From NCBI GenBank assembly GCA_913774665.1, contig CAJYHN010000010.1:186001-250000 (forward strand): a DNA stretch of 64,000 nt, read 5' to 3'. The notes beneath the pieces are model-generated. The model made no database searches and was not told where the DNA came from. It saw only the letters and a program-made list of their open reading frames with translations. The DNA is from an uncultured Microbacterium sp. (lineage in GTDB: Bacteria; Actinomycetota; Actinomycetes; Actinomycetales; Microbacteriaceae). Positions 2,843 to 8,682 of this stretch are shown here, in pieces. The stretch's first letter is position 1. Every line of letters starts with the position of its first letter. Both the position numbers and the translations under genes were made by a program.

Positions 2843-3649
2843 ATGGACGCATCCACAGCCACGGTGAAGCGACGCCTCCCGGCCGGCCGCAAGGCAGAGC
2901 TCGCCGCCTACGTCGCCGAGTCGGGTCAGGTGACCGTCGTCGACCTCGCCTCGCACTTCGGCGTCTCGATCGACACGGTCCGCCGCGACCTCGATCAGCT
3001 GGATCGCGAGGGGATCGTCGTGCGCACGCACGGCGGCGCCGTCAGCGCGATGTCCGTCCCCGGTCGCGACCGTGGCCTCGACGTCCGCCTGCAGATGCAG
3101 ATCGCCGAGAAGGAGCGCATCGCCGCGCTCGCCGTCGATCTCATCGAAGACGGCTCCGTCCTCATGCTCAACGCCGGAACGACGACGCTCGCCGTCGCTC
3201 GCGCACTCCGCAATCACCGCGACCTGACCATCGCCACGAACAACCTGCGCATCCCGGCGGAGATCTCGCCCGCGGTGTTCCGCGACCTCTACATCTTCGG
3301 CGGCGCCGTGCGAACGATCACGCAGGCGACGACCGGTCCGGTCACCCTCGCCATGAACTCCCACTCCCCCGATGTCGACATCCGGTGCGACTACGCGCTC
3401 ATCGCCGTCGGCGCCGTGGACGGTTCGGGCTTCTCGACCAGCAATCTCGGCGACGCGACGATGATGACCGAGATGATCCAGAAGGCCGATCGCACCGCGA
3501 TCCTGGCCGACTCCTCGAAACTCGACCGGCGCCTGTTCGCGCAGATCGCTCCTCTCGAGAAGGCGGACTACCTCATCACCGACGCGCCGCCGTCCCCCGA
3601 CCTCGCCGCCGCTCTCGCCGAGGCCGGGGTCACCGTCGTCACCCCCTGA
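2843..3649 (+). CDS. DeoR/GlpR-family transcriptional regulator
   Basis: This is a 268-residue cytoplasmic repressor of the DeoR family. The N-terminal winged helix-turn-helix spans about residues 18-70 and contains the family signature (VTVVDLASHFGVSIDTVRRDL, with GIVVRTHGGAV in the wing). The C-terminal DeoRC sensor domain follows, with NAGTTTLAVARAL (phosphate-binding loop) and DSSKLDRRLFA near the end. Such regulators usually respond to a phosphorylated sugar. The start at MDASTATVK is chosen because the upstream extension is not conserved-looking; no strong ribosome binding site is seen. It is divergent from the sugar ABC operon and most likely controls it. Confidence 0.93.
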   Translation: MDASTATVKRRLPAGRKAELAAYVAESGQVTVVDLASHFGVSIDTVRRDLDQLDREGIVVRTHGGAVSAMSVPGRDRGLDVRLQMQIAEKERIAALAVDLIEDGSVLMLNAGTTTLAVARALRNHRDLTIATNNLRIPAEISPAVFRDLYIFGGAVRTITQATTGPVTLAMNSHSPDVDIRCDYALIAVGAVDGSGFSTSNLGDATMMTEMIQKADRTAILADSSKLDRRLFAQIAPLEKADYLITDAPPSPDLAAALAEAGVTVVTP

Positions 3650-3965
3650 CCGCGGCGCTGCGCGCCCTCCCCGGGGTCTCGGACGGGCGGGGGTACCCAC
3701 CCGGCGCGTCGGCGCGTCACACGCGGAGAGCGCACCCCGGATGCCGCGTGGCGGACCGTGACGTGGGCGAAAGGATCCGGGACCGTTCGGGTGAAGTGCG
3801 GGGTGAACGATCACCTTTCACCAGCCCCGATCGACGCGCGGCGGACCGCGGATCCAATCCCTCACCCCGGAATCCTGCGGGAGTTCTTCCCTCGAGGGAC
3901 CCGATTCGGCTCGCTATACCGGACGAATCCGTCCACCTTCGGCGGAACCCTCTCAAAGGAGCATC
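3650..3965. other. Intergenic region, 316 bases, no gene
   Basis: No coding frame is convincing here. Near the right end lie a small inverted repeat (GGACG-AATC-CGTCC, near 3921-3934) and a TATACC hexamer (3915-3920) that could be a -10 element for the surface-protein gene, but no -35 at proper spacing is evident. The gene's ribosome binding site AAAGGAG sits at the end. Confidence 0.4.
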
Positions 3966-4622
3966 ATGTCCGCACCCTCCTCGCCGAAGCCGACCCGTCG
4001 GCGCCGGCTCGCCCTCCCGGTCGTGCTGGCCGGCAGCATCGCCTCTCTCGTCCTCGCGCTCGGACTCTCGCCCACCGTCGCCGCCTTCACCGCCTCGATC
4101 CAGAACACGGTCGACACCGCGGGCGCCGGCGCGCTGACCATGCAGGAGGCCGACTCCAGCGGCAACGTCGTCTGCAACAGCACCGACGGATCCAACGGCG
4201 TCTCGAGCAACGCCGCCACCTGCTCCTCGATCAACAAGTACGGCGGCAACCTCGCCATGTACCCCGGCCAGACGGTCACGTCGAACGTCACCATCAAGAA
4301 CACCGGGTCGATCGACGCCAAGTCGTTCACGCTGACGCCGGGCACGTGCACGCAGTCGGCGAGCAACGCGACGTTCGGCTCGGCGACCGACCTGTGCTCG
4401 CAGATGACCCTCGTGGTCAAGACCGGCAGTACGACCCTCTACTCGGGGACGGTCGCGGGGTTCACCGCCGCCGTCGACATCCTCAACAAGACCAGCACCA
4501 CCTCGGTGACCGCGGGCACCTCGACCTCCTTCAGCTTCGCCGTCACGCTGCCCTCGTCGGTCGGCCCGACCTACTCGAACCTGAAGGTCTCGCAGCCGCT
4601 GACCTGGCAGTTCACGTCCTGA
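3966..4622 (+). CDS. SipW-cognate exported surface protein (TasA/camelysin-like)
   Basis: This 218-residue exported protein has a basic n-region (TRRRR), a long hydrophobic core and the junction VAAFTASIQNTVDTAGAG. That pattern (AF-S/T-A-S-I-x-N-x-x-D-T-A-G) is typical of signal peptides handled by SipW-type signal peptidases; it recurs in the next gene and, in degenerate form, in the one after. The mature part is Ser/Thr/Asn-rich with a C-T-C pattern and predicted beta structure (NVTIKNTGSIDAKSFTLTPG), like TasA/CalY fibre subunits or other small surface proteins. AAAGGAG precedes the ATG. Its stop lies 13 bases before the start of a SipW-like peptidase gene, so substrate and enzyme appear to form one operon. 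Fibre formation is not shown by sequence. Confidence 0.8.
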   Translation: MSAPSSPKPTRRRRLALPVVLAGSIASLVLALGLSPTVAAFTASIQNTVDTAGAGALTMQEADSSGNVVCNSTDGSNGVSSNAATCSSINKYGGNLAMYPGQTVTSNVTIKNTGSIDAKSFTLTPGTCTQSASNATFGSATDLCSQMTLVVKTGSTTLYSGTVAGFTAAVDILNKTSTTSVTAGTSTSFSFAVTLPSSVGPTYSNLKVSQPLTWQFTS

Positions 4623-4635
4623 ACCCCCTGGTGCC

Positions 4636-6336
4636 GTGAGCGAGCTCTTGGAAGCCCCCGTCCATCGAAGCCGTCGCGGCGCCACCCTCGCGGCAGCGGC
4701 CGCGATCGCGCTCATCGCAATCGCGGCTGCTGCCGCCCTCTGGATCACCGGATCCCGCCTCTTCGTGGTCGAGACCCCGAGCATGGCCGAAGCCGCCCCC
4801 GTCGGCTCCCTCGTCCTCACCTCGCCACGAACCCACTACGACGTCGGCGACATCGTCACCTACACCCAGGACGACCGCACCGTCACTCATCGCGTCGTCG
4901 AGACGTCGGCGGGCGTGATCCACACGCGCGGAGACCTGAACGGCGCCGCCGACCCCTGGGACGTCCAGCCCGACCAGGTCATCGGTGCCGCCACCCTCAT
5001 CGCCCCCGGTCTCGGCTTCTTCCTCAAGGCTCTCCCCTGGCTGGTGCTCGGAGCTGTCGTCGTCGAGGCCCTCGCGCGCATCCGGCCCCACCGCTTCCCC
5101 TGGGTATGGACGGTGCGTCTGAACGGCTGGGCGGTCGTGATCACGGCGCTGACGCTCTGGCTGCGCCCCTGGTTCAACATGGTCCTTCTCGACTTCCGCG
5201 CCGACGACAAGGGCGCCGGGGCTCTGATGCACGTCGTGAACACCGGCATCCTGCCCATCCTCGTCGACGCCACGCGGCTCGTCAGCGGGCAGCAGGCCAC
5301 CGTGCTCGCCACTCACCGATCGGCGTCGGGCGCCTACTCCCTGACTCCGATCCCCGACCCTGAGCTGCCGGTGCGACTCCTGCTCATCGGGCTGTGCCTC
5401 CTGCCCTTCATCGCGTCGCTGATGATCCGTGAGCCCGACGCGATCCCGGAGGGCGGGGGGCGCGTCCGACCCGACCGCCGCGCTCGGACGATCCTCCTTC
5501 CCCTCGCGATCCTCACCGTCCTGGCCGTGATCGCACTCACCTCCCTCACCTCGACGCAGGCGGCTTTCTCCGCGTCCATCCGCAACGCCGCGGACACCGC
5601 CGGATCGGCGAACCAGAACTGCCGCTTCGCGGTCACCAGGATCGCCGCAGCGAACCCGTCCGACGCCTATGCCGCGTTCGCGATGTCTGCCACCTCTCAG
5701 ACGTCCGAGACCGACATCTCGGGCAACGGTCGCACCGGAACGTGGCGGAAACCGCCGACGGCGTCGACCTCGGTGGGCTGTCGTCACGACACGCCGACGC
5801 GGTCCGTGACCTTCGACGGATCGCAGTGCCTGTTCGTGCCGGGCATCGGCAACCCGCAGACCTTCAGCATCGAGGCCTGGTTCTCGACGACCACCGCACC
5901 CAACGGCAAGATCGTCGGCTTCGGGACCGATCCCGAACCCTCGCAAGAGAACCACTGGGACCGGCACATCTACATCGACGCCACCGGGCGACTCGTGTTC
6001 GGTACCTTCCCGGACGACTTCGTGGTGATCGCGACCCCGGCGGGAGTCAACTACGCCGACGGCAGATGGCACGCTGTCGTGGGCACGCTCTCCCGCAGCG
6101 GGATGCAGTTCTACGTCGACGGCAACCTCGTCGGCACGGACGGGAACACCCGCGCCCAGTGGTACGACGGCTATTGGAAGTTCGGCTGCGGGAAGCTGAC
6201 CTTCTGGATGGACCGGACGTCACCGTCGAACAGCACCCCGGCCTTCTTCACCGGCCAGATCCAGTACGGAGCCATCTACAATCGTGTCCTCACCGCGACC
6301 GAGGTGAAGAATCACTGGCTATCGGGCACGTGGTGA
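4636..6336 (+). CDS. SipW-type signal peptidase fused to a LamG domain
   Basis: This 566-residue membrane protein joins two normally separate parts. Residues about 17-150 are a SipW-like S26 peptidase: a membrane anchor, ETPSM with probable catalytic Ser49, GDIVTYTQDDRTVTHRV where His85 replaces the Lys of ordinary signal peptidases, and an HTRGDLN box. Further membrane segments lie near 131-148, 160-178, 245-264 and 284-304. After the last one comes TQAAFSASIRNAADTAG (about 307-323), which resembles the SipW-cognate cleavage junction of the preceding gene. Residues about 380-560 are a LamG/concanavalin-like domain (FSIEAWFSTTT, GRWHAVVGTLS, FYVDGNLVG). The GTG start follows the upstream stop by 13 bases. 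The predicted topology places both the active site and the junction outside the membrane. Self-cleavage is inference. Confidence 0.85.
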   Translation: MSELLEAPVHRSRRGATLAAAAAIALIAIAAAAALWITGSRLFVVETPSMAEAAPVGSLVLTSPRTHYDVGDIVTYTQDDRTVTHRVVETSAGVIHTRGDLNGAADPWDVQPDQVIGAATLIAPGLGFFLKALPWLVLGAVVVEALARIRPHRFPWVWTVRLNGWAVVITALTLWLRPWFNMVLLDFRADDKGAGALMHVVNTGILPILVDATRLVSGQQATVLATHRSASGAYSLTPIPDPELPVRLLLIGLCLLPFIASLMIREPDAIPEGGGRVRPDRRARTILLPLAILTVLAVIALTSLTSTQAAFSASIRNAADTAGSANQNCRFAVTRIAAANPSDAYAAFAMSATSQTSETDISGNGRTGTWRKPPTASTSVGCRHDTPTRSVTFDGSQCLFVPGIGNPQTFSIEAWFSTTTAPNGKIVGFGTDPEPSQENHWDRHIYIDATGRLVFGTFPDDFVVIATPAGVNYADGRWHAVVGTLSRSGMQFYVDGNLVGTDGNTRAQWYDGYWKFGCGKLTFWMDRTSPSNSTPAFFTGQIQYGAIYNRVLTATEVKNHWLSGTW

Positions 6337-6435
6337 CGCGCCGCTCGAGCCACGATCCGGCCGCCGGCTGGCCGAAAGGGGTGGGAGCGCGGTCGAGCCG
6401 CCGCCCGCTCTGTTCTCCTCCTCGGCGCCCTGACG

Positions 6436-7248
6436 GTGCTGGCGGTCGTCGCCCTCACCTCCCCGGATTCGACGCGCGCGACGTTCACGGCGACGATCGC
6501 CAACGGCATCGGCACCGCGGAGTCTGCGGCCCAGGACTGTCGCTTCGCCGTGACGAGCATCGCCGCGTCCGACCCCGCCGCCGTCTTCACCGCGTACGCC
6601 CTCTCGGGGACGTCCGCCTCATCCGAGACGGATTTCTCGGGCAGCGGTCGTGACGGGATCTGGCGCAACCCCCCGACCACCTCGACATCGGTGGCGTGCA
6701 CACACGACAGCCCTGCGCAGTCGGTGACCTTCGACGGATCGCAGTGCCTCTCCGCGCCCCCTCGCATCCGCACGCCCGACACGTTCTCGATCGAGGTGTG
6801 GTCCTCCACCACGACGGCGCCGAACGGCAGGCTCGCCGGCTTCGGCGATGACCTGGATCCGGCCCGGGAGGGCAGCTACGACCGGCACATCTTCATGGAC
6901 GCGTCCGGGCGCCTCTACTTCGGCATCTCCGACGGCGGGTTCGTCGTCATCGCGACCCCCGCGGGAACGAGTTACGCCGACGGGAGATGGCACGCGGTCG
7001 TCGCCACGCTCTCGAGCGCGGGAATGCGCTTCTTCGTCGACGGCTCCGTGGTCGGTACGAGAACCAACACCAGCGCCGCGGGCTACAACGGCTACTGGAA
7101 GTTCGGCTGCGGCAAGACCCGATACTGGCCCAACACACCGAGCAACGCCCCCCGGTTCTTCACCGGCCGTCTGCAGTACGGGGCCGTCTACACCCGCGCA
7201 CTCAGCGCCACCGAGGTGGAGAACCACTGGCTGGCCGGGCGGTGGTGA
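6436..7248 (+). CDS. LamG-domain protein, tandem copy of the preceding C-terminal half
   Basis: The protein (270 residues from a GTG) closely resembles residues about 293-566 of the preceding SipW-LamG protein: TLTVLAVVALTS then ATFTATIAN, then a LamG domain ending NHWLAGRW (the neighbour ends NHWLSGTW). It therefore looks like a tandem duplication of the LamG half. The reading frame is the same as the upstream gene and is open from the upstream stop (6334-6336) to 7248, but no ATG, GTG or TTG occurs in it before 6436, and the GTG has no ribosome binding site and truncates the export segment. A GTG at 6381 with GAAAGG before it lies in another frame and would supply a basic n-region if one indel were corrected. 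The gene may be shifted or use a weak start. Confidence 0.65.
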   Translation: MLAVVALTSPDSTRATFTATIANGIGTAESAAQDCRFAVTSIAASDPAAVFTAYALSGTSASSETDFSGSGRDGIWRNPPTTSTSVACTHDSPAQSVTFDGSQCLSAPPRIRTPDTFSIEVWSSTTTAPNGRLAGFGDDLDPAREGSYDRHIFMDASGRLYFGISDGGFVVIATPAGTSYADGRWHAVVATLSSAGMRFFVDGSVVGTRTNTSAAGYNGYWKFGCGKTRYWPNTPSNAPRFFTGRLQYGAVYTRALSATEVENHWLAGRW

Positions 7249-7326
7249 GGCGAGCACGCGTCACCGCCTCCCCGAGGGCGAGGGGCGGGACCGAGACGGT
7301 CGCGCGCCTCGCCCGCTCGCCTCGCC

Positions 7327-8682
7327 TCAGGCGACCACACGCTCCGGCGCGGGTGCCCCGTCGTCGAACTCCACCTCCGGCGGGCGTCGGCGGAACCCAC
7401 GGGTCAACACCGCGAGCCAGACGATGCCCACGCCGATCCACACGAGTCCGACCGTGAGAGCCAGCCCCGACAGGCTGAACCACAGCCAGGCGGTGAGCGC
7501 GAAGCCGAGGGCCGGCAGCACACCGAAGCGCAGCACGGCCGCCGCTCCCCGACGCCGCTCGTCGAAGAGGAAGTGCTTGATCACGGAGAGGTTGACGAGG
7601 GAGAACGCGGCGAGGGCCCCGAAGCTGATGAGGGATGCCACCGTGTTCAGGTCTGCGAAGAGCGCGGCGAGCGAGACCACGCCGACGAAGATCGCCGCGC
7701 CGATCGGCGTCTGATACCGCCTGCTCAGTCGGGCGAAGAAACGCGGCAGCACACCGTCGCGCCCCATCGCGAAGAGGATGCGCGAGACGCTCGCCTGCGA
7801 GGCGAGGGCCGCCGCGATGCACCCGGCGATGTAGGCGACGAGGAAGAAGACCTCGAGCCAGCGCCCGGCGGCGAGCTCCATGATCTGGTTGGCCGCGGCA
7901 TCCGGATTCTCGATATCGGCCACGTCGGGGATCACCAGAGTCGACACGTACGCGATCACGGTGAAGATGAGTCCGCCGATCACCGTGGTGAGGATGATCG
8001 CGCGGGGCACGGTGCGTTCGGCGTCGCGGGCCTCTTCGGAGAGGGTCGAGATCGCGTCGAAGCCGAGGAACGACAGCGCGAGCATCGCGGCTCCCGCCAG
8101 CAGGCCCGGGAAGGTGAGGCCCGCGTCGTAGAGCGGTTGCAGCAGCGAGACGCCGGGGTTCTGCGCGACGTGCAGCACCGCGCAGACGACGAAGACGGCC
8201 GCGAACACCAGCTGCAGGCCGACCAGGACGAGGTTGGCGTTTCGCACGACCGTGATGCCGACGATGTTGAGACCCGTGATGAGCAGAACGCCGGCGAGCG
8301 CGAACACCCACGGCGGGATGCCGGGCAACTGCGCGTTCAGGTAGATGCCCATCAGCACGTAGTTGATGAGCGGGAGCAACAGGTAGTCGATCATGAGCGA
8401 CCAGCCGGTGAGGAAGCCGACGGTGCCGCCGAAGGCGCGCCGGGCGTAGGTGTAGGCGCTCCCGGCACGCGGGAACGCCTTCACGAGCGCGGCGTAGCTG
8501 AACGCGGTGAACAGCATCGCCACGAGGGTGACGAGGTAGGCCGTCGGCACGTGGCCGCCGGTCGTGACGGCGACGAGGCCGTAGGTGGTGAACACGGTGA
8601 GGGGCACCATGTACGCCAGGCCGAAGATGACGAGGGAGGGGACTCCCATCACCCGCCGCAGCGAGGTGTCGGTTGCGGACAT
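7327..8682 (-). CDS. APC-family amino acid/amine permease
   Basis: This is a 451-residue integral membrane transporter of the amino acid-polyamine-organocation superfamily with about twelve membrane segments. Family features are VFGLAYMVPLTVFTTYG in the first helix, AFPRAGSAYTYARRAFG after the second, and FLGFDAISTLSEEARDAERTVPRA in the helix 6-7 region. The start follows AGGAAA at good spacing. It lies 32 bases after the amidohydrolase gene on the same strand, so the two are probably one transcript that brings in and processes a nitrogen compound. The operator-like site at 10319-10337 lies before the first gene. The substrate is not identifiable; amino acids or amines are likely from the family. 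Confidence 0.92.
   Translation of the reverse strand: MSATDTSLRRVMGVPSLVIFGLAYMVPLTVFTTYGLVAVTTGGHVPTAYLVTLVAMLFTAFSYAALVKAFPRAGSAYTYARRAFGGTVGFLTGWSLMIDYLLLPLINYVLMGIYLNAQLPGIPPWVFALAGVLLITGLNIVGITVVRNANLVLVGLQLVFAAVFVVCAVLHVAQNPGVSLLQPLYDAGLTFPGLLAGAAMLALSFLGFDAISTLSEEARDAERTVPRAIILTTVIGGLIFTVIAYVSTLVIPDVADIENPDAAANQIMELAAGRWLEVFFLVAYIAGCIAAALASQASVSRILFAMGRDGVLPRFFARLSRRYQTPIGAAIFVGVVSLAALFADLNTVASLISFGALAAFSLVNLSVIKHFLFDERRRGAAAVLRFGVLPALGFALTAWLWFSLSGLALTVGLVWIGVGIVWLAVLTRGFRRRPPEVEFDDGAPAPERVVA

What the first reader, a model, noticed from the sequence alone, without database searches (positions are those of the whole stretch)
4636..6336. A SipW signal peptidase that carries its own LamG cargo and cleavage site
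The peptidase motifs (Ser49, His85, HTRGDLN) and a LamG domain are in one chain, joined by a membrane segment and the same AFSASIxN-DTAG junction that marks the substrate encoded 13 bases upstream. The predicted topology places the active site and the junction both outside the membrane. A peptidase that releases its own extracellular lectin-like domain, alongside a separate fibre-like substrate, would be a compact secretion-and-assembly unit. SipW peptidases and their substrates are known; the LamG fusion and the self-processing idea are my inference.
Basis: partly seen in the sequence, partly recalled or inferred. Interest (0 to 1): 0.8.

Follow-up and report, generated by a model that had tools for sequence, protein, structure and literature searches.

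The report
Signal peptidase fused to its cargo
One bacterial protein joins a secretion protease to the surface protein that it probably cuts free; relatives suggest that the freed part starts or caps an extracellular fibre, although neither the cutting nor the fibre has been seen.

Summary
In detail: 4636-6336 is one 566-aa chain with an ER/SipW-type signal peptidase (Ser49, His85, Asp100), further membrane segments, a TQA|AFSASIRN junction and a LamG domain; the substrate-like gene (SUB) ends 13 bases upstream. The architecture is conserved: 15 uninterrupted fusions in 14 of 295 genomes of the genus, and 27 clean fusions in 80 named loci, including Propionibacteriaceae and Saccharibacteria. 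In 51 other named copies LamG is a separate gene whose start overlaps the peptidase stop by 4 nt (GTGA/ATGA) and which has its own SipW-type signal peptide. So LamG is most likely an exported substrate, not a cytoplasmic tail. The junction resembles SUB's for about 15 residues past the cut; a profile of SUB tags from other genera hits only SUB and this junction in the whole genome. In Bacillus the same place is the donor strand of TasA fibres and of their initiator TapA, whose gene also overlaps sipW. Best reading: a TapA-like fibre initiator or tip fused to its own peptidase and freed by self-cutting. Cutting and fibres are inferred, not shown. A second, different peptidase-cargo fusion lies in the same genome. 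New variant of a known kind.

The parts
3966..4622 (+). SUB: 218-aa exported protein, candidate fibre subunit, with signal peptide and TVA|AFTASIQNTVDTAG
   Evidence: ORF; upstream of 77 of 85 peptidase rows in 80 named loci; weak, colinear profile match to TasA 5of1/8aur, E 0.27/0.33
4074..4127 (+). SUB cut site and putative donor strand, T37 to aa 54, predicted cut between A39 and A40
   Evidence: alignment A4, position counts
4636..6336 (+). Peptidase-LamG fusion, 566 aa, GTG start
4684..4749 (+). Transmembrane segment 1 (aa 17-38)
   Evidence: hydropathy peak 2.44
4780..4782 (+). Ser49 codon, predicted nucleophile
   Evidence: invariant in 15 of 15 fusions, 55 of 55 peptidase rows
4888..4890 (+). 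His85 codon, predicted general base
   Evidence: invariant in 15 of 15, 55 of 55
4933..4935 (+). Asp100 codon, predicted third catalytic residue
   Evidence: invariant in 15 of 15, 55 of 55
5164..5361 (+). Conserved region between membrane segments 3 and 4 (aa 177-242, VVNTG motif), probably outside, function unknown
   Evidence: alignment A5; no detectable relation to SUB; best solved-structure match E 0.47
5491..5556 (+). Transmembrane segment 5 (aa 286-307), aligned with the signal peptide of the free-standing LamG genes
5554..5607 (+). Junction T307 to S324, predicted cut between A309 and A310, then putative donor strand
5854..6309 (+). LamG (Laminin_G_3) domain, aa 407-558
   Evidence: Pfam PF13385 61 bits
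6436..7248 (+). Second LamG copy with a membrane segment and TRA|TFTATIANG junction; frame open back to 6337, directly after the fusion's TGA, but without ATG/GTG/TTG before 6436
   Evidence: 64% identical to the fused LamG; in genome G203 the copy starts at a GTG that overlaps the fusion's stop

Best explanation
The locus is a dedicated export and fibre module. The peptidase, of the ER/archaeal (SipW-like) type, cuts the signal peptides of two substrates with the same private tag: SUB, the candidate fibre subunit, and LamG, which in this lineage is fused to the peptidase's own C-terminus. After Sec insertion the chain sits with about five membrane segments, active site and LamG junction both outside; the peptidase cuts at TQA|AF (in cis or in a neighbouring molecule), frees LamG and exposes its new N-terminus AFSASIRNAADTAG. 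That strand, almost the same as SUB's, is a donor strand: it complements a first SUB subunit, so LamG starts or caps the SUB fibre as TapA does for TasA, while its LamG domain binds a surface ligand, perhaps a polysaccharide. Fusion fixes LamG at one copy per peptidase, a minor component, made where SUB is processed. Shown by sequence: architecture, conservation, shared private tag, 4-nt gene overlap in unfused relatives. Inferred: cutting, cis action, donor-strand role, fibres, ligand.
For: Fusion conserved: 15 uninterrupted ORFs in 14 of 295 genus genomes. Of 85 peptidase rows in 80 named loci, 27 are clean fusions, 51 have LamG as a separate gene that starts at an xTGA overlap (36 GTGA, 15 ATGA), 2 rows are the pieces of one split fusion (L104), 1 (L128) has LamG in another frame without that overlap, 4 have no LamG within my limit; start codons make up 22 of 1530 codons (1.4%) of the same frame nearby. 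A relaxed junction pattern is in the first 75 aa of 51 of 51 separate LamG genes. SUB upstream in 77 of 85 rows. Cut-site residues are kept in fused copies: P3 T/S, P1 A/S/G, P2' F/L/Y each 28 of 28, P4' A 26, P6' I/V/L 28, P8' N 24. A SUB matrix of P1'-P15' ranks the junction first in 28 of 28 fused and 27 of 27 separate chains. A profile of 15 SUB tags from other genera gives in the whole own genome two hits at E<=10 among 50 candidates: SUB 6.4e-12 and the fused junction 0.004. Same-locus SUB and LamG tags are more alike than re-paired ones, 8.20 against 7.39 of 15 within class, 0 of 2000 (54 pairs). TasA is cut at TWA-AFND by ER-type SipW and poorly by LepB (PMC10269814); TasA residues 28-38 are the donor strand and TapA's N-terminus resembles it (PMC9674648); TapA donates its N-terminus, is about 100 times rarer than TasA, and tapA and sipW overlap at stop and start (PMC10151520). 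The peptidase profile matches human SEC11A/C, E 2.3e-5 and 4.6e-5.
Against: No processed form was seen; all is sequence. SUB's relation to TasA is not significant (E 0.27, with an antibody chain at 0.24) and the window SUB has no Pfam hit above cut-off. The long shared tag could serve recognition by the peptidase instead of strand donation. P2' is F in only 21 of 28 fused copies. With P1'-P8' alone the junction ranks first in 22 of 28 fused and 22 of 27 separate chains. Membrane segment 3 is weak (mean peak 1.47, lowest 0.78) and aa 194-212 is a borderline further segment (1.42), so parity of crossings from hydropathy is not safe; the loop 264-286 is rich in K+R but nearly neutral on balance (+0.7). 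dN/dS of the 17 junction codons is 0.71 in the one pair tested. The pairing test does not correct for kinship. LamG is not homologous to TapA.
Confidence: 0.55

Rival explanations
1. Cut but not fibre-bound: the peptidase releases LamG as an ordinary secreted carbohydrate-binding protein, and the stretch shared with SUB is only the peptidase's recognition sequence.
For: LamG/ConA-like folds often bind sugars (family knowledge, recalled); two other cargo-bearing peptidases of the genus carry a CBM2-like domain (L196, E 8.5e-5, 23.3 bits under a cut-off of 24) or long repeats (L197) behind a similar junction.
Against: Signal peptidases usually read few residues past the cut (recalled), while here P4' A, P6' I/V/L and P8' N are kept in both substrates, the alternation expected of a strand; SUB lies just upstream in 77 of 85 rows.
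Confidence: 0.25
2. Uncut anchor: segment 5 stays and the peptidase displays LamG on the cell surface, holding the enzyme near the wall or near a ligand.
For: A fused membrane segment needs no cutting to display LamG; no processed form is known.
Against: P3, P1 and P2' of the cut site fit in 28 of 28 fused copies, which an anchor would not need; the same segment is an N-terminal signal peptide in 51 separate genes.
Confidence: 0.15
3. Fusion cut in trans by another peptidase of the cell, with no self-processing; the genome holds three further relatives of this peptidase.
For: Three other peptidase places in the genome (C10:407 kb, C12:20.7 kb, C8:26.6 kb).
Against: The tag profile finds only SUB, the fusion and the second LamG copy at E below 0.01; two of the other three peptidases have substrate-like genes beside them with other junctions.
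Confidence: 0.05

Closest known systems
Bacillus subtilis tapA-sipW-tasA
   Same: Dedicated ER-type peptidase with two substrates, a major fibre protein and a rare initiator; TasA cut at T-x-A|A-F; initiator and fibre protein have similar N-terminal strands; initiator and peptidase genes overlap (PMC9674648, PMC10151520, PMC10269814; passages seen).
   Different: Here the initiator-like protein is LamG, follows the peptidase instead of preceding it, and is fused to it; gene order is SUB-peptidase-LamG; SUB is only weakly like TasA.
Bacillus cereus sipW-tasA, calY and capP
   Same: TasA, CalY and CapP are all said to be processed by SipW, and CapP acts as assembly chaperone (PMC13082335; abstract and passages seen).
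   Different: CapP is a separate DUF4047 protein; no LamG or fusion in what I saw.
Clostridium perfringens sipW-bsaABCRSD
   Same: SipW needed for extracellular localisation and polymerisation of BsaA (PMC7395162; passages seen). 17 of 72 SUB rows match the BsaA family weakly, best E 0.017.
   Different: Separate genes; no LamG in the passages seen.
Streptococcus pyogenes SipA
   Same: Signal peptidase-like protein essential for pilus polymerisation (PMC4049620; title and start of abstract in a search listing only).
   Different: Sortase-built pili; no cargo fusion in the listing.

Membership tests
ER/archaeal-type signal peptidase I (SipW/SEC11 kind) | Ser-His(-Asp) active site in place of Ser-Lys | tested here: met
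   S49, H85, D100 invariant in 15 of 15 and 55 of 55. Ser-His for the ER type is stated in PMC10269814; the Asp role is recalled.
ER/archaeal-type signal peptidase I (SipW/SEC11 kind) | Significant profile match to a proven member | tested here: met
   A3 profile to SEC11A E 2.3e-5, SEC11C 4.6e-5; the window chain alone finds nothing at E<=1
ER/archaeal-type signal peptidase I (SipW/SEC11 kind) | Curated cut-off of NCBIfam TIGR02228 | tested here: not met
   Window chain 46.2 against 51.85 bits; 18 of the 82 members of A3 (55 of them hold a peptidase) match at E<=1e-13
SipW equivalog of Bacillus (NF046067) | Curated cut-off | tested here: not met
   31.9 against 190 bits: works like SipW, not filed as SipW
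TasA/camelysin fibre proteins (for SUB) | Cut site T-x-A|A-F with a strand-like N-terminus | tested here: met
   P3 T/S 71 of 72, P1 A/S 72, P2' F 67, P4' A 72, P6' I 72 of 72; P1' is G in 48 of 72
TasA/camelysin fibre proteins (for SUB) | Profile or fold match to TasA | tested here: inconclusive
   TasA 5of1 E 0.27, colinear, level with an antibody chain; no PF12389 hit for the window SUB at E<=1
TasA/camelysin fibre proteins (for SUB) | Polymerises by donor-strand exchange | not testable with these tools
   needs structure or microscopy
TapA-like initiator (for LamG) | Gene overlaps that of the peptidase at stop and start | tested here: met
   51 of 53 rows called separate; order reversed with respect to tapA-sipW
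TapA-like initiator (for LamG) | N-terminal strand like that of the fibre protein | tested here: met
TapA-like initiator (for LamG) | Homology to TapA (V-set Ig fold) | tested here: not met
   The domain is Laminin_G_3: works like TapA at most, is not TapA
Laminin_G_3 / LamG | Pfam gathering score | tested here: met
   61 against 27.6 bits

The most novel reading that the evidence does not exclude
A whole class of actinobacterial and saccharibacterial signal peptidases carry their own substrate. In this one the enzyme cuts itself to create a donor strand and so plants the first subunit of an extracellular fibre where the subunits are processed: peptidase, initiator and adhesin in one chain, a donor-strand fibre system without usher or sortase. 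Other members of the class in the same genus carry an unassigned domain of about 110 residues, a CBM2-like domain or long repeats instead of LamG.
Probability: 0.35. Interest if true: 0.85.

Novelty: new variant of a known kind. Interest (0 to 1): 0.68.

Why it matters
If true, Actinobacteria and Saccharibacteria have TasA-like donor-strand fibres with a built-in initiator, made by a protease that releases part of itself. It gives a simple test of how such fibres start and of how a signal peptidase is matched to private substrates, since one genome here holds several peptidase-substrate sets with different tags. The two states (fused, or overlapping by 4 nt) are also a clear natural series for gene fusion between an enzyme and its substrate.

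Tried and rejected
Artefact of one assembly: rejected, 14 other ORFs of the genus and the named relatives keep the frame. LamG inside the cell: made unlikely by the separate genes. The VVNTG region as a degenerate SUB domain: hhalign probability 0.3%. UGA readthrough into the second LamG copy: possible in the window, where the frame is continuous but for one TGA, but not conserved, since in G203 the copy lies in another frame behind its own overlapping GTG. Promoter and terminator scan at 3600-7400: no promoter-like site, one terminator-like site on the other strand against 1.0 by chance.

Literature. In the library searched, no paper holds both SipW and LamG: 9 papers hold at least two of camelysin, SipW, LamG, and LamG is 0 in all 9. 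'SipW-dependent' with Microbacterium gives 0 papers. 'Signal peptidase I, self-cleavage, C-terminal, Gram-positive' gives 3, and none of the three listings describes a cargo fusion. Searches gave no such fusion in their listings either; of the 25 papers only 15 were listed. Only open-licence PubMed Central was searched, and a cargo fusion may be described in other words. Recalled, from no call: that some signal peptidases cut themselves; LamG ligands; how far past the cut signal peptidases read.

Limits of the counts. The named scan kept the best 80 of 119 relatives and needs one of two peptide patterns. The genome search scored at most 4 candidates per genome, 5, so copies may have been missed. 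My profiles for peptidase and LamG were built from 15 genus sequences and for SUB from 12, window included. A3 holds 82 rows: 28 fusions (window included) and 27 of the 51 clean separate loci as peptidase and LamG rows; 24 Curtobacterium, Clavibacter and other Microbacteriaceae loci were left out by eye to thin the set. The 72 SUB tags hold 43 different ones. In one search one split fusion (L104) counts as two rows, one 'fused' and one 'separate'; in L111, one of the 4 rows without LamG, a LamG match lies further downstream than my limit. The tree is a quick one with long branches; two fused rows (Actinomycetospora, Sinomonas) sit with the separate ones, two changes in all, one forced by starred branches.

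Full report
What is there. 4636-6336 encodes one 566-aa chain. Residues 23-130 are a signal peptidase of the ER/archaeal kind: NCBIfam TIGR02228 at 46.2 bits and SipW NF046067 at 31.9 bits, both under their cut-offs; a profile of 82 rows (55 with a peptidase) matches human SEC11A and SEC11C at 2.3e-5 and 4.6e-5. Ser49, His85 and Asp100 are invariant in 15 of 15 genus fusions and 55 of 55 peptidase rows. Residues 407-558 are a Laminin_G_3 domain (61 bits). Between them lie further membrane segments, a conserved region with a VVNTG motif (aa 177-242), a basic loop, and a last segment ending in TQA|AFSASIRNAADTAG. The gene upstream (3966-4622, SUB) ends 13 bases before and has TVA|AFTASIQNTVDTAG.

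Conservation. In the genus, 143 of 295 genomes have some match at E<=1e-5; in the rows listed, most are matches of LamG parts to other, larger open frames. Fourteen genomes (own included) hold 15 uninterrupted full-length fusions, the relatives at 44-80% identity. One further copy (G233) is split between two frames, and in G083 peptidase and LamG match in two overlapping frames, that is as two genes. In 398 genomes of the family, 210 match the 304-position peptidase profile at E<=1e-10; by my count from the table 43 of them (own included) have a match of 140 bits or more, which runs through the VVNTG region. In 396 genomes of the phylum, 25 match at E<=1e-15, and 23 of these matches end by model position 168, before the VVNTG region. 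A scan of named genomes gave 119 relatives, of which the best 80 were kept.

Fused and separate states. In the 80 named loci I found 85 peptidase rows. Twenty-seven are clean fusions. In 51 LamG is a separate gene with an in-frame start that overlaps the peptidase stop as GTGA (36) or ATGA (15); start codons make up 1.4% of the same frame nearby (22 of 1530). Two rows are the two pieces of one split fusion (L104); one (L128) has LamG in another frame without the overlap; four have no LamG within my limit (L100, L111, L158 twice). A relaxed junction pattern occurs in the first 75 residues of 51 of 51 separate LamG genes. SUB lies upstream in 77 of 85; of the eight without, three are second copies in tandem arrays, three lie at the start of the fetched stretch, one is L104's second piece, and only L101 has room upstream and no SUB found. 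L095, L097 and L098 (Propionibacteriaceae) hold three SUB genes and two fusions each. Fused copies occur in Microbacterium, Propionibacteriaceae, an unplaced actinomycete MAG, Saccharibacteria, Actinomycetospora and Sinomonas; separate ones in Curtobacterium, Clavibacter, Subtercola, Frondihabitans, Leifsonia, Arthrobacter and Actinokineospora. On a quick tree of 55 peptidases 26 of 28 fused ones form one side of a branch with support 100; two changes of state suffice. The five saccharibacterial loci have the base composition of their stretches (GC 0.38-0.54 outside and 0.40-0.54 inside the fusion, against 0.60-0.71 in three propionibacterial or actinomycete MAG loci), so they do not look like contamination by those.

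The junction. Position by position, SUB (72 rows), fused LamG (28) and separate LamG (27) share [TS]-x-[ASG]|[AG]-[FYL]-x-A-x-[IVL]-x-N-x-x-[ND]-[TS]-A as a majority pattern. A matrix made from SUB alone, mature residues P1'-P15' only, ranks the junction first among all windows in 28 of 28 fused and 27 of 27 separate chains; with P1'-P8' only it is first in 22 of 28 and 22 of 27, so the longer stretch carries the signal. In the window chain the junction scores 27.3 bits and the next best place -2.9. Over the whole own genome a 35-column profile of SUB and LamG tags (47 rows, 2 of them from the window) has three hits under E 0.01: SUB, the fusion and the second LamG copy; the fourth, at 0.57, is elsewhere. 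In 13 related genomes its hits under 0.01 are 30, two for each of 15 loci; the second copy of G203 follows at 0.017 and places outside the loci begin at 0.023. To avoid circularity I made a profile from 15 SUB tags of other genera: two hits at E<=10 in the own genome, SUB (6.4e-12) and the fused junction (0.004).

What it works like. In Bacillus subtilis TasA is cut at TWA-AFND by SipW, an ER-type peptidase, a site that LepB of Escherichia coli processes poorly (PMC10269814, passages). The residues after the cut, 28-38 with F29 and I32, are the donor strand that joins TasA subunits, and TapA's N-terminus resembles it (PMC9674648, passages). TapA gives this strand to TasA, is about 100 times rarer, and its gene overlaps sipW at stop and start (PMC10151520, passages). 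Here the same features recur with LamG in TapA's place: overlap with the peptidase gene, a cut site of the same form, and an N-terminus like that of the neighbouring fibre candidate. Fusion is then a natural end of the overlap: one initiator for one peptidase. This is inference from anatomy; neither cutting nor fibres were observed. SUB's own relation to TasA is only suggestive (E 0.27; BsaA family weakly in 17 of 72 rows).

Topology. In the fused set five segments have mean hydropathy peaks of 2.5, 2.0, 1.5, 2.5 and 2.6, and the loops at 140-160 and 264-286 hold 14.9% and 17.7% K+R against 7.5%, 6.1% and 6.8% for the catalytic part, the VVNTG region and LamG. That puts active site, VVNTG region and LamG outside. 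Segment 3 is weak and aa 194-212 is borderline in the window chain, so I lean on the separate LamG genes, where the last segment is an N-terminal signal peptide.

A wider theme. The own genome has three more peptidase places. At C12:20.7 kb a gene with a weak camelysin match (PF12389, 19.5 bits under a cut-off of 22.5) precedes a peptidase that again carries a last membrane segment, a SASF junction and about 110 further residues in one chain, without a Pfam hit at E<=0.01; matches to this second fusion are found in 22 of 198 genus genomes at E<=1e-10, over most of its length in G149, G063, G007, G083, G070 and G103 besides the own genome. Two more distant ones carry a CBM2-like domain (L196, just under cut-off) or long repeats (L197) behind an AAF junction. 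At C8:26.6 kb the cargo-like protein, with its own GAYFTAQK junction, is a separate gene. Cargo-bearing peptidases thus seem to be a recurrent design, with different tags.

The second LamG copy. 6436-7248 is 64% identical to the fused LamG. Its frame is open from directly after the fusion's TGA, yet has no ATG, GTG or TTG before 6436, which would cut off most of the signal peptide. In G203 the copy begins at a GTG overlapping the fusion's stop, the same arrangement as in the separate lineages. Between the two genomes it is under some constraint (dN/dS 0.33). Whether the window's copy uses a rare start, is frame-broken, or holds a sequencing error is open.

Verdict. Observation confirmed; interpretation partly supported and extended. 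New variant of a known kind (SipW-TasA-TapA-like fibre export), with a self-carrying peptidase that I did not find described in the papers I could search.

Noticed in passing
window 6337-7248: Second LamG copy in frame behind the fusion's TGA without a usual start before 6436; a copy with an overlapping GTG start exists in genome G203.
   Followed up: partly
L004 (own genome C12:19192-22620): A second, different SipW-like peptidase with its own last membrane segment, SASF junction and about 110 further residues in one chain, behind a weakly camelysin-like gene; conserved in some genomes of the genus.
   Followed up: partly
L005 (own genome C8:25082-28372): SUB-like gene, SipW-like peptidase and a separate repeat protein (YVTN-like repeats by eye, no family search) with the junction GAYFTAQKTLPDN: the unfused form of the same plan.
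   Followed up: no
L101, L102, L105, L108, L109: The fusion occurs in Saccharibacteria contigs with matching base composition, which suggests old transfer between these and Actinobacteria.
   Followed up: partly
L095, L097, L098: Propionibacteriaceae arrays with three SUB genes and two tandem peptidase-LamG fusions, perhaps mixed fibres with two initiators.
   Followed up: no
window 5164-5361: Conserved RPW...VVNTG...P region between membrane segments 3 and 4 of the peptidase, without a known relative; found in both fused and separate lineages.
   Followed up: partly
L196 and L197: SipW-like peptidases of the genus that carry a CBM2-like domain or long repeats behind an AAF junction.
   Followed up: partly
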